Assembly (NCBI GenBank): GCA_031296345.1
Contig: JARLFW010000129.1
Location: forward strand, 1-12,658
Length of the DNA stretch: 12,658 bases
Origin: Nitrosotalea sp.
Lineage (GTDB): Archaea; Thermoproteota; Nitrososphaeria; Nitrososphaerales; Nitrosopumilaceae
Reading direction: 5' to 3'
Positions 3,668 through 10,556 of the stretch are shown here, piece after piece. The position numbers and the translations under genes are program-made. The notes under the pieces were generated by a model. It was not told the origin of the DNA, did not search any database, and was given only the letters and a program-made list of their open reading frames with translations. The first letter of the stretch is position 1. Every line of letters begins with the position of its first letter.

Positions 3668-6600
3668 CTAGTCTATTTTCTCATATGATTCTAGTGGCTT
3701 TTTCGTAGTCTCGTTATGCTTTAGCCACTCCAAAGTCTTAGCAAAAGAATCTGCAAGCTCTGTAGTTATCAGCACGGGAATTCCAAGCTCTACTGCCTTT
3801 CGTCTAATTTGATATTCATCATAAAGCATGCCAACATATTTTTCAAGTGTCGAAGTACTTGGGACATTTATGATAAAATCAATTTTTCGCTCATATAACA
3901 TGTCTGCAATGTTTGGCTTTCTTTCAGGCTCACTTATTTTATAGACTACTTCTACATCACCTATTCTTTTATCAGACAAAAATTCAGCAGTATGCTCTGT
4001 TGCAAGGAGCTTGTATCCTAGGCTTTTGAGTAAAAGTGCAGTCTGCAACAGTTTTTCCTTGTTCTCAGACCCACCTGCACTAATAAGTACAGAGCCCTCT
4101 TTTGGAAGAGAATACCCTACAGACGTCAGACCCTTTGCAAGTGCATCATAGAAACTCTCACCAAAGCATGCCGCCTCACCAGTTGACTGCATCTCTACAC
4201 CCAGTACAACATCTGCACCTTCAAGCTGCATAAAGGAAAACTGCGGTACCTTGATTCCATAATTATGAATTTTACGCCACCTATCTTTTGGAACATGTGG
4301 AAGGGGTTTGCCCAATACCGCACGGGCTGCCAAGTTGATAAGATTCATCCTTACAAATTTTGAGACAAACGGCATGGAGCGTGATGCCCTGATGTTAAGT
4401 TCTATCACATAGACCTGGTCTTGGTGTATCAAAAATTGCAGATTAAACGGTCCTTTGATCTTAAATGCAACAGCAACTTTTTGCGTGTAATCAAGTATAG
4501 TATCAATTGCTTTATTGTTTAGAGTCCAAGGGGGAATACACATCATGGAATCTCCAGAATGAACTCCCGCACCTTCAATATGTTCAATTACTGCACCAAT
4601 CACAACATTTTCTCCATCACCCACACCATCAACTTCAGCCTCAAGTGAATTTAGCATGAACTTTGTAATAACTACAGGATAGTCTGGTGATACATTGGTT
4701 GCCTCTTGAAGATATTTTTTGAGCTGAGTTTCAGACCATACAACTTTCATTGCAGCTCCACTTAGGACATAGGACGGTCTCACAAGAACTGGATATCCAA
4801 CTTTGATTGCAAATTTTTTGGCATCAACAAGACTTGAAAACGCCTGCCATGGAGGCTGTCTGATATTTAGAACATCAAGTACTTTGCTAAATGTAGAACG
4901 ATTCTCTGCTCTATCAATATCTTCAAAAGATGTTCCAATAATTTTAATTCCATTTTGTGCAAGTTTTGGAGTAAGATTGTTTGCAGTCTGCCCTCCTACT
5001 GCTGTAACAATACCATCTAACTTTTCAAATTCTGCAATATCCAAAACTCGTTCTAGTGTGAGTTCTTCAAAGTATAGCCTATCACAGATATCATAATCAG
5101 TCGATACTGTCTCGGGGTTGCAGTTAATTACAGATACCTCTTTTACACCATTTTCTTTTAATCCCCATACCATGTTTACAGTTCCCCAGTCAAACTCTAC
5201 ACTACTACCGATTCGGTATGGACCTGCACCAAGTACTGCTATTTTTTGAGAATCAGTTGTTATCTCAAAGTCGCTAGTCTTTCCTCCATATGTCAGGTAT
5301 AGATAGTTGGTCTTGGCAGGCCACTCTGCTGCAAGTGTATCAATTCGTTTTACTACGGGTAAAATTCCCTCTTTTTTCCTTAATTTTCTAATCTCAAGAT
5401 CATCTTTTCCAACCAGTCTTCCAATTTGTTTATCAGAAAAACCCAATATTTTTGCCTCGTGAAGTACATTTTTTTCAAGTTTAGACTCTTTGATTCTTTT
5501 TTCAGAATTTACTATATTTTTGATTTTTTCTATAAACCACGGGTCAATTGCAGAGAGCTTGTAGATGCGCTCAACAGGCATTTCTTGTCTTATTGCCTCT
5601 GCTACATAGTACAAGATGCGGTCATCAGCATGTTGGAGTTTATTTTCAATCTCTTCAATGTCATATTTTTTATCTCCGTTACGATTTGCAACTAGGCCAT
5701 CATTTCCAATCTCTAGCATTCGTATTGATTTTTGCAATGACTCTTCAAAGCATCTCCCAATTGCCATGACCTCGCCTACAGATTTCATGGTAGGTCCAAG
5801 ATTACGATTAGCAAGTTCAAACTTGCCAAAATCCCATCTAGGATGTTTACATACAATATAATCTAAAGATGGCTCAAAACATGCAGTTGTAGTTTTTGTG
5901 ATACGGTTTACAAGTTCTGGTAAAGTATATCCCATCACAATTTTTGCTGCCATGTATGCAATAGGATATCCAGTTGCTTTGCTTGCAAGAGCAGATGAGC
6001 GAGAAAGTCTCGGATTCATCTCAATTGCAACATACTTGTCAGAATCCGGGTCTAGTGCAAATTGGACATTACACTCTCCAACAATTCCCACATGTTTTGC
6101 AGCACGTAATGCTGCAGAGCGCAACAACTGATATTCATAATTGTCAAGTGTCTGCGATGGTGCAACTACAATATTGTCACCAGTATGAACCCTCATTGAA
6201 AGTACATTTTCCATGTTACAGATTATCACATTGTTTCCAGTATAGTCTGCCATTACTTCATACTCGATTTGTTTCCAGTGACCCACATATTCTTCAATTA
6301 GAACTTGGCCCACTAGACTTGCGTTAAGACCTCGCGATACAATTTCATGTAATTCAATTTCATTGTGTGCAACGCCTCCACCTTTTCCACCCAGAGTATA
6401 CGCAACCCTTACGATAACAGGATAGCCCAATTCATTTGCGATTTTTTTTGCGTCTTCGAAGTTGTATACGGTCCTACTTTTGAGAACAGGTACATTGCAT
6501 GCAATCATTGAATCCTTGAAGAGCTGTCTGTCTTCAGTGGCTCGGATTCCAGTCACCTGAGTTCCAAGTACTTTGATACCGTATTTTTTTAAAATCCCAA

Positions 6601-6935
6601 GTTCGTCTAGATTTACTCCACAGTTAAGTGCAGTCTGGCCTCCAAAGCCAAGCATAAGACCATCTGGCCTTTCTGCTTCTATGATAGATTCAACATATGC
6701 AGGATTTACTGGAATAGAGTACACCTTGTCTGCAAATCTTGTATCAGTTTGAATTGTTGCAATGTTTGGATTTACAAGTACACTCTTGATTCCGTCTTCC
6801 TGGATGGCTTTGAGGCACTGGCTACCGGAGTAGTCGAATTGACGGCCACTTGAAGTGACTTTCGCCTGCTTCTCCGATTTTGATTGCCCCACTGCCAAGA
6901 ACTAGAATCTTCTTTAACGACTCATCTTTTGGCAT
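3668..6935 (-). CDS. carB: Carbamoyl-phosphate synthase large subunit, interrupted by a 22-nt intron
   Basis: CarB makes carbamoyl phosphate from bicarbonate, ammonia delivered by CarA, and two ATP, feeding pyrimidine and arginine synthesis. Exon 1 (6935-6861) encodes 25 residues with the expected start, KILVLGSGAIKIGEAGE. Exon 2 (6838-3668) begins FDYSGSQ and runs uninterrupted. The spliced product is 1081 residues (E. coli CarB about 1073). Seen: first ATP-grasp unit with YTLGGKGGGVA and EMNPRLSRSSALASKATGYP; a helical oligomerisation region; second unit starting VLGAGPYRIGSSVEFD, with HIEGAGVHSGDS and ELNIRASRSMPFVSK; and a C-terminal MGS-like allosteric domain (ISAGGSENKEKLL onward). The ATG at 6935 overlaps the carA stop by 14 nt and follows GGGGAGG, a Shine-Dalgarno-like site. 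A longest-frame start at 6898 (TTG) would give a wrong N-terminus and lose the first nucleotide-binding strand and loop. If the 22 nt are not removed, translation stops after 37 codons. Confidence 0.95.
6839..6860 (-). other. Predicted archaeal pre-mRNA intron (22 nt) with relaxed BHB (HBh') fold in carB
   Basis: On the minus strand, GGCG (6866-6863) pairs with CGUC (6844-6841) as the central 4-bp helix. The next three bases, AAA (6862-6860), form the 5' bulge. Inner helix GUCAC (6859-6855) pairs with GUGGC (6849-6845) around the loop UUCAA (6854-6850). AAU (6840-6838) forms the 3' bulge. The outer helix is essentially absent: only A6867-U6837 pairs next to the bulge, so this is the relaxed HBh' form. 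Cleavage after the second base of each bulge, the standard splicing-endonuclease rule, removes 22 nt and joins GGC GAA to TTC GAC, giving GEAGEFDYSG in frame. Because both ends carry AA, the same product is reached by junctions shifted 1-2 nt. Structure, size and restored protein motif agree independently. Confidence 0.88.
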
Positions 6936-8094
6936 TGTCCTCCCCTATGAGTTTCTTGAGCTCTTCAAAAATAAACATGCAATCAAAAGGTCCAGGTGAT
7001 GCCTCTGGATGAAATTGTACAGCGATTATCTTTTTTTGTTTATGTTTTATTCCTTCTACTGTTTTATCATCTGCGTTTGTAAACCATAATTTAAAATCAG
7101 TATTTTTCAAAGACTCTGGGTCAATACAGTATCCATGATTTTGACTAGTAACATAGACTTGATTATTATCAAGATCAATACAGGATTTGTTTTGTCCTCG
7201 GTGACCATACTTTAGCTTGTAAGTATTTGCACCACCTGCCAGTCCCAAGATTTGTGCACCAAGACAAATTCCTAGTGTCGGAATATTTTTCTCGATTAAT
7301 GATTTTGCAGTCTTCATTGTTTCACCACACTTGAGTGGATCGCCTGGCCCATTTGAGACAACAACCCCTTTTGGATTGTATGATAAAATTTTCTCAATTG
7401 AATAATTCCACGGAACTTTGATTACCTTGTATCCCAAGCTTCGAACATTTCGCAATATTGCATTTTTTACTCCAGTGTCAATTACCACAATTGATTCATA
7501 TTCTGAACCAAATATTTGTGGCTCTTTTGTAGATACAGTATTCATAAATTCCTCATCGTTGTATTTTTTAGCAGATGTCAATCTCTTTTTAAGTTCTGAT
7601 ATATCAATTGGAGTATCAGATACTGCAAGTGCTCCCATCATTACTCCACTCGTTCGAAGTTTTATCGTAAGTTCCCTTGTATCAATTCCTGAAATTCCTG
7701 GAATTTTTTCATTATACAGCCATTCATCAAGTGTCAGGGATAAATTCCAGTGGCTTGCTGTAAGGGATAATTCATGTACAACTAGTCCCCTTGCCTGGAT
7801 CATTTCAGATTCAAAGTTTTTTCGTATACCATCAGAGTCTTTTGCCATAGGGTCAGGAACGCCATAGTTTCCCACAAGAGGATAGGTAAGTGTCAGAATC
7901 TGTCCACTATAGGAAGGATCCGTGAGTGCCTCAGTATAGCCAGTCATGCCAGTATTGAATACTGCTTCACCAAAGACAGTAGTAGAATAGCCAAAACCCA
8001 TGCCCTCAAAAACAGTCCCATCTTCTAAAATCAATACACCAAACTTGTTTGCATGTTTGGCTTTTCTTGTTGGAATCCTTGAAACCCTCTGCAT
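6922..8094 (-). CDS. carA: Carbamoyl-phosphate synthase small (glutaminase) subunit
   Basis: CarA hydrolyses glutamine and passes ammonia to CarB. It has 390 residues. The N-terminal CPSase domain (about 18-150) shows LILEDGTVFEGMGFG, FNTGMTGYTEALTDPSY and the GISGIDTREL segment. The C-terminal class I amidotransferase domain (about 200-385) has the nucleophile in LGICLGAQ (Cys277) and the His-Glu pair in VQFHPEASPGPFD (His362, Glu364), so glutaminase activity should be intact. The ATG start at 8094 gives an extra basic segment of about 17 residues before the usual beginning, which is not unusual for archaeal versions. An A/T-rich TATA box about 25 nt upstream fits a leaderless transcript and supports this ATG. 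Its stop overlaps carB by 14 nt, which implies translational coupling. The cdvC gene ends 90 nt upstream on the same strand, but carA seems to have its own promoter. Confidence 0.96.
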   Translation of the reverse strand: MQRVSRIPTRKAKHANKFGVLILEDGTVFEGMGFGYSTTVFGEAVFNTGMTGYTEALTDPSYSGQILTLTYPLVGNYGVPDPMAKDSDGIRKNFESEMIQARGLVVHELSLTASHWNLSLTLDEWLYNEKIPGISGIDTRELTIKLRTSGVMMGALAVSDTPIDISELKKRLTSAKKYNDEEFMNTVSTKEPQIFGSEYESIVVIDTGVKNAILRNVRSLGYKVIKVPWNYSIEKILSYNPKGVVVSNGPGDPLKCGETMKTAKSLIEKNIPTLGICLGAQILGLAGGANTYKLKYGHRGQNKSCIDLDNNQVYVTSQNHGYCIDPESLKNTDFKLWFTNADDKTVEGIKHKQKKIIAVQFHPEASPGPFDCMFIFEELKKLIGEDNAKR

Positions 8095-8184: not shown

Positions 8185-9369
8185 CTAGAGTGCTTTGAAT
8201 TGTTCAGTCCACTTGTAGTATGCTCTAATCATTTCCATGCTAACACTTGGCTTTCTTCTTGATATGATCTCTTTGAAGTCAGCTGTTGTTAGTATACGCG
8301 GTTGTGATTTTGGTTCTCCCAATACTTCTTCTCCAAAGTTTGGAGAGTGGAATAAATCGTTTACAACCATCAATTGTGCGGATTGACAAATATCTTTAAC
8401 ATCAGATGCACTATACCCATCTGCAAGTTTTGCAAGCTCAATTGCCTTTACTTTATCATCCTTATGTAATGGCGCAGTGTAGAGATTGAAGAGCGCTTCT
8501 CTTGCTTCAACGGACGGAAGTGAAACATAGACTCTCTTTGTAAATCTTCTAAGAAACGGCCAGTCAAGACTCCATGGTTTGTTTGTTGCACCAATGACAT
8601 AGAGTTTGAGGTCTTTTCCTTTACCGTTGATTCCATCCATCTCGGTTAAGAATTGGTTTTTGACACGAATCTCTCCACCAATCTCACTGTTACGGTTACC
8701 AAGAAGCGAATCTACCTCATCACTAAATAATATAACTGGAAGTCCTTCTTTTTCTGCCAATCCTCTTGCCATTTGGAATAGTTTGGAGACATTTTTTTCA
8801 GCTTCTCCTAGCCACTTGCTCATCATAGATGCTGCATCTACGTTGATAAAGTAACCATCAATCTCATTTGCAGTAGCTGCTGCAATGACTGTCTTTCCAC
8901 AGCCCGGTGGACCATAAAGTAAGATTCCTCTTGGCCATCCAAGTGGGAACAGGTCTGGTCGTTTTGCAGGATATACAATTGATTCTCGTAAAGCATTCTT
9001 TGCGTCGTCCAAGCCGATAACTTCTTCCCATGTTACATTTGGTTTTTCCTTCATTATCAGCGAGTCTAGTTCATTTTTAGTAAGAGATTGTTTTTGTTCT
9101 TCAGGAGTTGCTTTTGGATCAACAGCTGGTTCCAATTCAACATTATTCATCTGCAATGCCTTGATGCGATTCTGATATGCAGCAGTTCTCTCTTGATATA
9201 CTCTGTTTAGTTTGTTTTCAGGATAAAGCTGGATTAATTTAACAAGGGATTCAATTGCTCGTTGGTAATTTGCAATTGCCATTCCTCTGGCACCTTGAGA
9301 ATCAAGTTTTATTGCTTCTGCAGCAAATTTACTTGCGCTATTTTCTAATTCTTGTGGGGCTAGACTCAT
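8185..9369 (-). CDS. cdvC: Cell-division ATPase CdvC (Vps4-like AAA+)
   Basis: CdvC is the archaeal homologue of Vps4. It disassembles ESCRT-III-like CdvB polymers with ATP during membrane constriction at division. The 394-residue protein has an N-terminal MIT-type helical domain (about 1-75), which binds motifs in CdvB proteins, then a linker, then one AAA+ module from about 110. Seen: Walker A GPPGCGKT (153-160), pore-loop SKWLGE (184-189), Walker B VILFSDEVDSL (Asp217, Glu218), sensor-1 Asn263 in GATNKPW, and an arginine-finger pair in PFLRRF (Arg274, Arg275). The Walker B strand ends in Ser before DE, where Ile or Leu is more common, a minor variation. The C-terminus has the Vps4-like helical end (YYKWTEQFKAL). 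The ATG at 9369 follows the upstream gene by 11 nt, so it is co-transcribed with the two genes before it. Confidence 0.95.
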   Translation of the reverse strand: MSLAPQELENSASKFAAEAIKLDSQGARGMAIANYQRAIESLVKLIQLYPENKLNRVYQERTAAYQNRIKALQMNNVELEPAVDPKATPEEQKQSLTKNELDSLIMKEKPNVTWEEVIGLDDAKNALRESIVYPAKRPDLFPLGWPRGILLYGPPGCGKTVIAAATANEIDGYFINVDAASMMSKWLGEAEKNVSKLFQMARGLAEKEGLPVILFSDEVDSLLGNRNSEIGGEIRVKNQFLTEMDGINGKGKDLKLYVIGATNKPWSLDWPFLRRFTKRVYVSLPSVEAREALFNLYTAPLHKDDKVKAIELAKLADGYSASDVKDICQSAQLMVVNDLFHSPNFGEEVLGEPKSQPRILTTADFKEIISRRKPSVSMEMIRAYYKWTEQFKAL

Positions 9370-9380
9370 AATATCATCAA

Positions 9381-9959
9381 CTATATCTCGACTGCTGTTC
9401 TTTCAAGGTAATCACCTGTGTTAACTCGTCTAGCAGAATTTGTTAAATTAATTGAACCAACTTCAGTCCTTGGCATTTCAACCTTCACAGGCTCAATTTT
9501 TACAGGTTCGGCTTTTTGGGTAAGAGTACTTAGAAGAGAAGGTATTCTAAAGTCATCAATCTTGGTTTGAGATACTTTGCCAAAGGCAAGATTCTCAGTC
9601 ACATCATCGTGCAGTGTCTGAATCTGGTGTAGTGCAAATTCTGCAGATATAACCAAGTCTTCAAGTTCAGTTTTCAATCCATTAACAGAGTTCGATGCGT
9701 TCAGTATGATTCCAATAAACTCTTGTAAAAAGACTTGGATATCGCGCTTATCTTGATATTTTGTAAGTAAATATTCTGCAGCCTGCATCACTTGTCTTAT
9801 GTCTTTTAACTCCTCAACAGAAAGAGTCTCAATAAAAGAATCACTGTCATCTTTTCCCTTTTGAGATATTTTTTGCTCAATTTTCGAAGACAAGGTCTTG
9901 ATTTTATCGAGATGCCCAGACAAGTCAGATTGGCCATCATTCTTTGTAAAATTTAACAT
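9381..9959 (-). CDS. Helical Cdv-operon protein of unknown function, possible divergent ESCRT-III partner
   Basis: A 192-residue protein that I do not firmly recognise. It is almost entirely helical from about 10 to 140 (HLDKIKTLSSKIEQKI, then VEELKDIRQVMQAAEYLLTKY, then an amphipathic stretch through ISAEFALHQIQTLHDDV). A flexible Pro/Val/Glu-rich linker follows at about 148-166 (KAEPVKIEPVKVEMP), then a polar tail ending GDYLERTAVEI. The linker recalls Pro-containing MIT-interacting motifs through which ESCRT-III proteins bind Vps4/CdvC; this resemblance is weak and is inference. It lies between the CdvB-like gene (9 nt gap) and cdvC (11 nt gap) in one tight operon, so a role in the same division or membrane-remodelling machine is likely. 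ATG start at 9959. There is no signal peptide and no Cys. It could be a second, highly diverged ESCRT-III subunit or an adaptor. Confidence 0.75.
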   Translation of the reverse strand: MLNFTKNDGQSDLSGHLDKIKTLSSKIEQKISQKGKDDSDSFIETLSVEELKDIRQVMQAAEYLLTKYQDKRDIQVFLQEFIGIILNASNSVNGLKTELEDLVISAEFALHQIQTLHDDVTENLAFGKVSQTKIDDFRIPSLLSTLTQKAEPVKIEPVKVEMPRTEVGSINLTNSARRVNTGDYLERTAVEI

Positions 9960-9968
9960 ATCAGTGCC

Positions 9969-10532
9969 TTACCAGAAATCTAGATTAGGGAACTGCTTGT
10001 ATATTTTAGAGTCGGCGATCAATTTAGCTTCATCCAATAACCTGCTTGAGACCTCATTTGCCTTGCCAAAGTCCAAGTTTGTGCTTGCCAAGTGTGCTGC
10101 ATCAATTATAATTCCGCCCAATAGTAATGACAATTCCCCTAATTGAAAATCCATTGCCGGCATTAGTGCCAAGAGTTTAGACCTAATTGTTCTAACAACA
10201 GATATTGTTGGAGAGAGTACCGTTGGAACATTTCCAAGCCCAACTATACAGTCAATGCTTCGTCTTACTTGCCTTAGCGATTCAATGGTATAAGACAGTT
10301 CAAGTTCATATCGAACTTGTTTTTCAAGTGTAGAAAGTACCTGAGAGTCCTTGTCTAATCTTTGATACAACTCTAAATTATTTTTGTTCACATCTTGTCG
10401 GTGTCGTGCCAGAACATCAAGCAAGCCATCTACAATCTCAGCGGCATAGTCAATTCTTGGCTTGATTGTACTTGCGCGTACTAGTTGACTCTTGCTATTA
10501 TTTTCAATAATCCATTTTGATTGATTTATCAT
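9969..10532 (-). CDS. ESCRT-III-like protein, CdvB family
   Basis: This is a 187-residue helical protein from ATG 10532. A TTG at 10541 would add three residues, but the TATA position favours the ATG. The segment from about residue 90 to 140 matches the pattern of archaeal CdvB proteins: a long coiled helix ending LRQVRRSIDCIVGLGNVPTV, followed by LSPTISVVRTIRSKLLALMP and QLGELSLLLGGIIIDA. This is the family layout of a helix, LGDV-like turn, P-x-I-x-V-hydrophobic segment, a MPE-like turn, and ELGE. CdvB proteins form filaments at the division site and are remodelled by CdvC. No C-terminal winged helix or clear MIT-interacting motif is visible, so it is a short paralogue rather than a full CdvB. 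It is first in the operon, and the start of the TrmB gene is about 160 nt away on the opposite strand. Confidence 0.78.
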   Translation of the reverse strand: MINQSKWIIENNSKSQLVRASTIKPRIDYAAEIVDGLLDVLARHRQDVNKNNLELYQRLDKDSQVLSTLEKQVRYELELSYTIESLRQVRRSIDCIVGLGNVPTVLSPTISVVRTIRSKLLALMPAMDFQLGELSLLLGGIIIDAAHLASTNLDFGKANEVSSRLLDEAKLIADSKIYKQFPNLDFW

Positions 10533-10556
10533 TCCCAACAAGAGACTTGACTTTGT

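What the first reader, a model, noticed from the sequence alone, without database searches (positions are those of the whole stretch)
6835..6870. A 22-nt bulge-helix-bulge intron inside carB
The carB reading frame breaks after 25 correct codons and resumes 22 nt later. The 22 nt sit in an RNA fold with a 4-bp central helix (GGCG/CGUC), a 3-nt bulge AAA, a 5-bp inner helix (GUCAC/GUGGC, one G-U) with loop UUCAA, and a 3-nt bulge AAU. Applying the archaeal splicing-endonuclease rule (cut between bulge bases 2 and 3) at both bulges removes exactly the out-of-frame 22 nt and rebuilds GEAGEFDYSGSQ, the conserved CarB motif. Archaeal introns are normal in tRNA and rRNA; among mRNAs the well-known case is cbf5 of crenarchaea. 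I know of no described carB intron, and 22 nt would be very small for a protein gene. Heterotetrameric endonucleases, reported for Thaumarchaeota, accept relaxed HBh' substrates, which fits the missing outer helix.
Basis: partly seen in the sequence, partly recalled or inferred. Interest (0 to 1): 0.95.

Follow-up and report, generated by a model that had tools for sequence, protein, structure and literature searches.

The report
Tiny spliced intron in archaeal carB
In many ammonia-oxidising archaea the gene for an enzyme needed to make pyrimidines and arginine is interrupted at one fixed spot by a 20-40-letter insert that spoils its reading frame, and the cell's tRNA-splicing enzyme is predicted to cut this insert out of the messenger RNA, a kind of message splicing that has very likely been overlooked in this gene.

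Summary
Confirmed and extended. carB (minus strand) encodes 25 correct residues, breaks for exactly 22 nt (6839-6860), and resumes FDYSGSQ. It is no artefact. Of 219 genomes whose letters I read here (a chosen set, not a census), 142 carry an insert of 18-40 class size (20-40 nt, all three lengths mod 3) and 77 none. In 112 distinct sequences the bulge rule places both cuts at the insert's ends; the first four inner-helix pairs form in 444 of 448 cells (3' arms dealt anew: mean 369.6, SD 4.1). Distinct inserts of length 3n hold an in-frame stop in 49 of 49. The genome has a catalytic and a non-catalytic EndA gene. The intron is widespread in Nitrososphaeria, absent in sister genomes of several genera, and recurs in Woesearchaeota, some with a second predicted intron and a 23-nt micro-exon. 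No RNA was examined, so splicing is inferred. Archaeal mRNA introns are known from cbf5; my searches listed no paper on carB.

The parts
6861..6935 (-). carB exon 1, 25 codons, overlaps the end of carA by 14 nt
6839..6860 (-). predicted 22-nt BHB intron AGTCACTTCAAGTGGCCGTCAA
3668..6838 (-). carB exon 2 (FDYSGSQ... to stop)
6860..6862 (-). 5' bulge AA^A, predicted cut between 6861 and 6860
   Evidence: AR^A in 109 and AR^T in 3 of 112 distinct sequences
6838..6840 (-). 3' bulge AA^U, predicted cut between 6839 and 6838
   Evidence: A(A/G/T)^T in 109 of 109 distinct inserts
6863..6866 (-). central helix, 5' strand GGCG (exon 1)
   Evidence: three inner pairs in 112 of 112, outermost in 95 of 112
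6841..6844 (-). central helix, 3' strand CGUC (intron)
   Evidence: GGTG/CACC in G040 is a both-sided change
6855..6859 (-). inner helix, 5' strand GUCAC
   Evidence: first four pairs 444 of 448 cells, fifth 77 of 112
6845..6849 (-). inner helix, 3' strand GUGGC
6850..6854 (-). loop UUCAA; varies in sequence and length between genomes
6869..6875 (-). outer helix, 5' strand GGAGAAG (exon 1 codons Gly-Glu-Ala)
   Evidence: six pairs in 140 of 142 intron genomes, 18 of 77 intronless
6827..6833 (-). outer helix, 3' strand CUACUCC (exon 2 codons Asp-Tyr-Ser)
6922..8094 (-). carA, small subunit gene just upstream (named by eye)
   Evidence: ORF; family not tested

Best explanation
The 22 nt at 6839-6860 interrupt carB and are likely a bulge-helix-bulge intron, which the two-subunit tRNA-splicing endonuclease EndA would cut at both bulges and the ligase RtcB would then seal, so that the message would encode an unbroken CarB. 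Shown by sequence: the interruption, its conservation, the covarying BHB fold, the exonic outer helix, the two EndA genes in this genome, and RtcB genes in relatives. Inferred: transcription across the site, cleavage after base 2 of each bulge, ligation by RtcB, and translation of the spliced message. Inferred on weaker grounds: unspliced copies would meet a stop after at most 28 codons in each of the 275 insert-bearing loci, and the 3n-length introns hold an in-frame stop, so selection seems to act against read-through of unspliced carB; and since an unspliced message would give only a short peptide, splicing could set the amount of CarB.
For: Same site, phase 0, in 142 of 219 genomes read, lengths 20-40 nt in all three residues mod 3, including the single-contig genomes G005, G035, G043, G045, G156 and G174, so assembly error is excluded. 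End-anchored inner pairs 444 of 448 against 369.6 +- 4.1 when 3' arms are dealt anew (maximum 383 of 1000); sliding the partner by 1-3 drops the share to 0.60 or less. The count of structure pairs on 16 chosen rows: cells paired 95.8% against 85.2%, covariation score 0.469 against 0.264, both 0 of 500 shuffles. Central-helix Gly codon GGC in 141 of 142 intron genomes against 8 of 77 intronless, near-by background about 0.20; the one exception, GGT, is matched by CACC in the intron. Outer helix through codons GGA, GAC, TAC, TCC far above background. 3n introns with in-frame stop 49 of 49 distinct sequences; loop shuffles mean 16.7, maximum 26 in 2000. EndA: the catalytic subunit is closest to 3p1z, 2cv8, 3ajv and 2zyz, with KPK aligned to K44-P45-R46; the second subunit lacks the His and Lys of the triad, as I read the alignment. 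RtcB in 15 of 15 relatives searched. Uninterrupted carB in genomes of the same genus as intron-bearing ones.
Against: No cDNA, RNA-seq or peptide was examined. The window alone folds only modestly better than shuffles (z -1.52) and its minimum-energy drawing lacks the central helix; over 126 distinct sequences the minimum shows at least 3 central pairs in 87 and all three helices in 85. The outermost central pair is G.A in 17 of 112 and the fifth inner pair fails in 35 of 112. In one search two of the five measures do not exceed the shuffles (pairs changed on both sides, 150 of 500; further pair types, 456 of 500). RtcB was not found in the window's own genome, a draft of 78% completeness. No public protein listed carries the spliced junction at high identity: of 120 listed of 7,999 scored, the only row above 85% identity is the window's own exon-2 protein.
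Confidence: 0.94

Rival explanations
1. Translational bypassing: the ribosome hops over the insert, as in T4 gene 60 (recalled), with the hairpin as a helper.
For: A hairpin sits just behind the last codon, and bypassing would also tolerate any length.
Against: No landing codon: the three bases before TTY never begin with G (0 of 109 distinct inserts) and never equal the GAR take-off codon (0 of 275 loci). Bypassing does not explain two 3-nt bulges spaced by a central helix, the exonic outer helix, or the second interruption in Woesearchaeota.
Confidence: 0.03
2. Pseudogene or assembly error: the frame break is a sequencing fault or carB is dead in this lineage.
For: The window's genome is a draft of 78% completeness in 180 contigs.
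Against: The insert occurs in 142 genomes read, several in one contig, in many genera; exon 2 stays open to its end; stems covary.
Confidence: 0.005
3. CarB starts inside exon 2 or just upstream of it, and exon 1 is a leader.
For: A mechanical ORF list does this for the window: its ORF starts at a TTG in another frame of exon 1, so the window is among the 20 of 275 loci that have some upstream start codon.
Against: 255 of 275 insert-bearing loci have no ATG/GTG/TTG in the exon-2 frame between FDYSG and the nearest upstream stop (or 75 nt above GEAGE), and none has an ATG there; the first ATG inside exon 2 is codon 61 in 233 of 275. Solved CarB chains match the spliced protein from its residue 1 (1bxr: 1-138 on 1-138), so a late start would lose a conserved part. 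Exon 1 keeps its frame and sequence.
Confidence: 0.02
4. The BHB is cut but mainly to break the carAB message (RNA decay or control), with little ligation.
For: EndA processes a 5' UTR site in a Haloferax mRNA (PMC7714728, passages).
Against: The insert varies in length in all three residues mod 3 while both exon frames stay intact and the bulge rule keeps both cuts at the insert's ends, which has no reason without ligation.
Confidence: 0.03

Closest known systems
cbf5 pre-mRNA intron of Crenarchaeota (Watanabe 2002, cited; Yokobori 2009, PMC2738675, passages and section 8 part 2)
   Same: Short BHB intron in a protein gene (16-44 bp there), cut rule between bulge bases 2 and 3, hetero-oligomeric EndA, lineage-wise loss.
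   Different: Another gene (carB), phase 0 after GEAGE, other lineages (Nitrososphaeria, Woesearchaeota). A table passage of PMC2738675 gives 0 for cbf5 in C. symbiosum and N. maritimus. Here an outer helix is held by exon codons across an internal loop, and a second intron with a micro-exon occurs in some Woesearchaeota. Splicing of cbf5 was shown by cDNA; here it is predicted.
Other predicted introns in archaeal protein genes (SIRV1 virus 12-bp inserts, Peng 2004; Sulfolobus genomes, Brugger 2006; both only as cited in PMC2738675)
   Same: Predicted, unconfirmed introns in protein genes.
   Different: Those papers were not read; the passages do not name carB or these lineages.
Archaeal tRNA and rRNA BHB introns
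   Same: BHB fold and enzyme.
   Different: The host RNA here is a message; ARAGORN finds no tRNA in the window.
HVO_1309 5' UTR BHB in Haloferax volcanii (PMC7714728, passages)
   Same: An mRNA substrate of EndA.
   Different: Lies in an untranslated leader and does not restore a reading frame.
T4 gene 60 type translational bypass (recalled)
   Same: A non-coding gap in a reading frame beside a hairpin.
   Different: No matching take-off and landing codons here.

Membership tests
Archaeal BHB pre-mRNA intron (cbf5 type) | Insert that interrupts a conserved protein reading frame, removal of which restores it | tested here: met
   142 of 219 genomes read. The loci were found by a pattern that requires both flanks, so rejoining as such is built in; uninterrupted sisters show the same joined reading
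Archaeal BHB pre-mRNA intron (cbf5 type) | 4-bp central helix flanked by 3-nt bulges on opposite strands, cuts between bulge bases 2 and 3 falling on the exon borders | tested here: met
   Three inner central pairs and first three inner-helix pairs 112 of 112; outermost central pair 95 of 112, G.A in 17; bulges
Archaeal BHB pre-mRNA intron (cbf5 type) | Stem maintained by compensatory change | tested here: met
Archaeal BHB pre-mRNA intron (cbf5 type) | Hetero-oligomeric splicing endonuclease in the organism | tested here: met
   Two PF01974 genes, one with the catalytic motif, one without its His and Lys; assembly of the enzyme not tested
Archaeal BHB pre-mRNA intron (cbf5 type) | Spliced mRNA observed | not testable with these tools
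   no read archive at hand
Archaeal BHB pre-mRNA intron (cbf5 type) | Cleavage by EndA in vitro | not testable with these tools
   needs a bench assay
Translational bypass | Matched take-off and landing codons (recalled) | tested here: not met
   0 of 275 loci
Group I or group II intron | Large catalytic core (recalled) | tested here: not met
   longest insert among those read is 40 nt

The most novel reading that the evidence does not exclude
Message splicing by the tRNA-splicing enzyme is an old and widespread trait of archaeal carB. One intron at the same codon border is shared by ammonia-oxidising and related Nitrososphaeria and by Woesearchaeota, lost many times, kept in shape by synonymous codons in both exons, and policed by translation through in-frame stops. 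In Woesearchaeota a second intron leaves a 23-nt micro-exon, so that one message needs two splicing events. carB splicing would gate pyrimidine and arginine synthesis.
Probability: 0.5. Interest if true: 0.94.

Novelty: new member of a known kind. Interest (0 to 1): 0.88.

Why it matters
A paper of 2020 (PMC7714728, passage) names cbf5 as the one archaeal message with a reported BHB intron, beside its own 5' UTR case. A second gene, in archaea that are among the most abundant on Earth (recalled) and in cultured strains, would turn mRNA splicing by EndA from a rarity of hyperthermophiles into something that can be studied in mesophiles with existing RNA-seq. It also means that automatic annotation is liable to call CarB truncated or broken in these genomes, that reading-frame breaks in archaeal genes deserve a BHB check, and that synonymous codons in both exons carry a splicing signal. 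In-frame stops in introns of length 3n are, as far as I recall, a signature described for eukaryotic introns; here they would speak for selection by translation on unspliced archaeal messages.

Tried and rejected
Artefact, pseudogene, bypassing, late start and group I/II introns were considered and rejected on the evidence given. A covariance model of the intron (R1, 16 rows) searched in 21 genomes found the carB site in 12 and nothing else below E = 0.1; four weak matches (E 0.106, 0.12, 0.54, 0.702) were not followed, and at most 150 first-look candidates per genome were scored. So a second intron gene in these genomes is neither shown nor excluded; the model also missed the 30-nt carB intron of G040. 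Protein look-up for a spliced junction in public proteins gave none among the rows listed. Paper searches for such introns. No listed title or abstract start describes a carB intron, but several listings were cut (25 of 308, 15 of 345, 20 of 36). The 2006 C. symbiosum genome paper is not held; Yoshinari 2006 was seen only in reference lists.

Rows dropped: seven loci gave no pattern match. L045 was a wrong stretch (G048 was read later as L128). L080, L154, L221, L222 and L223 are uninterrupted by eye but carry other letters in the motif or unread bases, so five intronless genomes are not in the 77. L298 ends too close to the match. The 219 genomes are not a random draw: the stretches were picked mainly because the protein match was broken or held a stop. 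The 275 insert-bearing loci include repeats of one genome, named copies of unnamed ones, and two Woesearchaeota. Strict BHB hits are common by chance (5 candidates round L341, 5 round L407, 13 round L410, 6 round L409), so the second Woesearchaeota intron rests on frame, stops and the shared register as well. For L366 its inner helix needs a 1-nt bulge, and the strict scan gave a different 42-nt candidate that would delete conserved residues.

Full report
What is there. carB lies on the minus strand behind carA. Its first 25 codons (6935 to 6861) encode MPKDESLKKILVLGSGAIKIGEAGE; then come 22 nt (6860 to 6839) that shift the frame; then FDYSGSQ and an open frame to the stop at 3668. The rejoined protein is matched from its residue 1 by solved CarB chains (1bxr, query 1-138 on chain 1-138; E. 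coli, recalled), and in the printed alignment to 6uel the stretch from LGSG to FDYSGSQ has no gap.

Is it real. A DNA search in 61 genomes found the site in 46. The 30 loci it fetched, all of the window's genus and one of them the window itself, each carry an insert of 20, 21 or 22 nt at the same border. The genus is Ca. Nitrosotalea, judged by equal contig lengths: G035, 1,805,304 bases, equals LN890280.1 Ca. N. devanaterra; G013, G016 and G036 match other Nitrosotalea records likewise. A protein search of 400 genomes of the class matched 344, and further searches by handle gave places for other families. Letters at the site were read in 219 genomes: 142 with an insert, 77 without. This is a chosen set, since many stretches were fetched because the match was already seen to be broken. 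By family: f1 91 with and 33 without, f8 33 and 1, f10 11 and 14, f12 2 and 1, f3 2 and 0; f5, f11 and f20 one each with; f2, f4, f9, f13, f14, f15 and f17 none with, 28 without in all. Five more uninterrupted genomes did not fit the pattern and are outside the 77. They bear names such as Nitrosopumilus salaria BD31, Nitrosarchaeum, Nitrosotenuis, Cenarchaeum, Nitrosocosmicus, Nitrososphaera sp. AFS and Ca. Nitrosopolaris. In the phylum search 271 of 398 genomes matched; the listed matches from outside the class span the border and show no stop, but not all 271 are listed.

Fold. Counting from the two ends of the insert, so that no alignment can favour the structure, the four inner-helix pairs next to the bulge form in 444 of 448 cells over 112 distinct sequences; dealing the 3' arms anew gives 369.6 +- 4.1, at most 383 in 1000; sliding the partner by 1 to 3 gives 0.016 to 0.598 in place of 0.991. 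The fifth pair forms in 77 of 112. Twenty-two arm combinations occur, such as GTCA/TGAC, GTCG/CGAC, GCCG/CGGC, GCTG/CAGC, GTTA/TAAC and GTGC/GCAC. The central helix holds its three inner pairs in 112 of 112 and its outermost in 95. Its exon strand is a Gly codon plus one base, and that codon is GGC in 141 of 142 intron genomes against 8 of 77 intronless, where GGC makes up about a fifth of Gly codons near by. The one GGT genome, G040, has CACC in its intron. Bulges are AR^A (T for the last A in 3 of 112) and A(A/G/T)^T. In 175 of 275 loci the two cuts could slide by one to three bases and give the same message; the BHB rule picks the register used here. On 16 chosen rows the pair counter finds 95.8% of cells paired and a covariation score of 0.469, above all 500 shuffles, while the number of pairs changed on both sides and of further pair types are not above them.

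Outer helix. GGAGAAG of exon 1 pairs with CUACUCC of exon 2 around one A.A mismatch, set off by an internal loop. All six pairs stand in 140 of 142 intron genomes and 18 of 77 intronless ones. GGA, GAC, TAC and TCC are used in 138, 135, 138 and 120 of 142 against backgrounds of 0.37, 0.43, 0.34 and 0.17 in the same genes. The helix often runs on into the neighbouring codons: all three further pairs in 91 of 142 against 6 of 77. RNAfold draws at least four of the six outer pairs in 121 of 126 sequences, at least three inner pairs in 124, at least three central pairs in 87, and all of these together in 85. For the window alone the energy is not striking.

Stops. Inserts whose length is a multiple of three hold an in-frame stop in 49 of 49 distinct sequences, the others in 39 of 63; shuffling the loops of the 49 gives 16.7 on average and at most 26. 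Unspliced, translation meets a stop after at most 28 codons in the 275 loci. Relatedness inflates such counts, but stops of different kinds and places occur in families f1, f3, f5, f8, f10 and f12.

Enzymes. The window's genome has two EndA genes. One keeps the catalytic motif and is nearest to 3p1z, 2cv8, 3ajv and 2zyz (crenarchaeal enzymes, recalled); its KPK aligns with K44-P45-R46 of the loop that PMC12397907 ties to broad substrate use (passages). The other lacks the His and Lys of the triad as I read its alignment. PMC4090602 (passage) states that Thaumarchaeota have the alpha2beta2 type. RtcB is in 15 of 15 relatives searched but was not found in the window's own incomplete genome.

History. 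On a tree of CarB exon 2 the trait needs at least 12 changes over 219 rows (FastTree) and 10 over a 78-row set. Families f1 and f8 form a supported group in which intron-free rows are nested (G179 in f8, groups in f1), which speaks for repeated precise loss; the count itself cannot tell gain from loss. Genera g10, g12, g27, g29 and g44 hold both states. G103, by recalled length Nitrosopumilus maritimus SCM1, is intron-free; G156 and G174, by recalled length N. gargensis and N. viennensis, carry 21 and 33 nt.

Beyond the class. Two of the named stretches are Woesearchaeota (L341, L366). In the class of L341's genome, 24 of 378 genomes matched CarB, one of them only in the second half of the protein. 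Of the other 23, G918 has the same-site intron; G961 has an 18-nt one there plus an upstream one; G730 (L341's genome) has both; G1007 has the upstream one alone; 13 are uninterrupted by their letters and 6, which did not fit the pattern, by match length and lack of a stop. The four upstream introns (29, 30, 32 and 36 nt, L366 included) share one register with three central pairs and a mismatch, restore GSGALKIGEAGE, hold an in-frame stop each, and lie 23 nt before the GEAGE border. Both genomes checked, G730 and G731, have an EndA gene. Woesearchaeota CarB forms its own clade (100), so misbinned Nitrososphaeria contigs are unlikely; the intron-free Nitrososphaeria family f13 joins it (99), away from the other Nitrososphaeria, which hints at transfer of the gene. 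Shared descent, transfer of the gene's 5' end, or a favoured insertion site remain open.

What is not shown. No transcript or peptide was seen. The literature seen here names cbf5 as the archaeal message with a reported BHB intron (PMC7714728, passage; PMC2738675, passages and section 8 part 2, which also mentions predicted, unconfirmed introns in other genes), and nine searches listed no paper on a carB intron (some lists were cut). Papers not held may say otherwise.

Noticed in passing
L341 (= L388), L366, L410, L409 (Woesearchaeota and their class): A second predicted BHB intron of 29-36 nt inside the GSGA-L-KIG codons of carB, leaving 23 nt before the GEAGE border; G1007 has only this one, G918 only the other.
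   Followed up: partly
L142, L152, L173 (family f1): 21-nt introns without the usual loop TAA (such as AGTCGCAAAAACGACCGCTAA) still have a TAA as their last codon, as if one in-frame stop must be kept.
   Followed up: partly
L077 (G179, family f8, genus g44): An uninterrupted carB nested among intron-bearing sisters, with synonymous codons that differ from the intron type: looks like a clean loss.
   Followed up: partly
L126, L128 (family f13): CarB of these intron-free Nitrososphaeria groups with Woesearchaeota CarB and not with the rest of its class, so carB may have moved between the two.
   Followed up: no
window 8185-10541: By eye, an AAA ATPase with an MIT-like start and two coiled-coil genes behind it, resembling the Cdv/ESCRT-III division genes; no family search was run.
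   Followed up: no
window 6922-6935: carA and carB overlap by 14 nt, so splicing of carB would act close behind the carA stop on what is probably a shared message.
   Followed up: no
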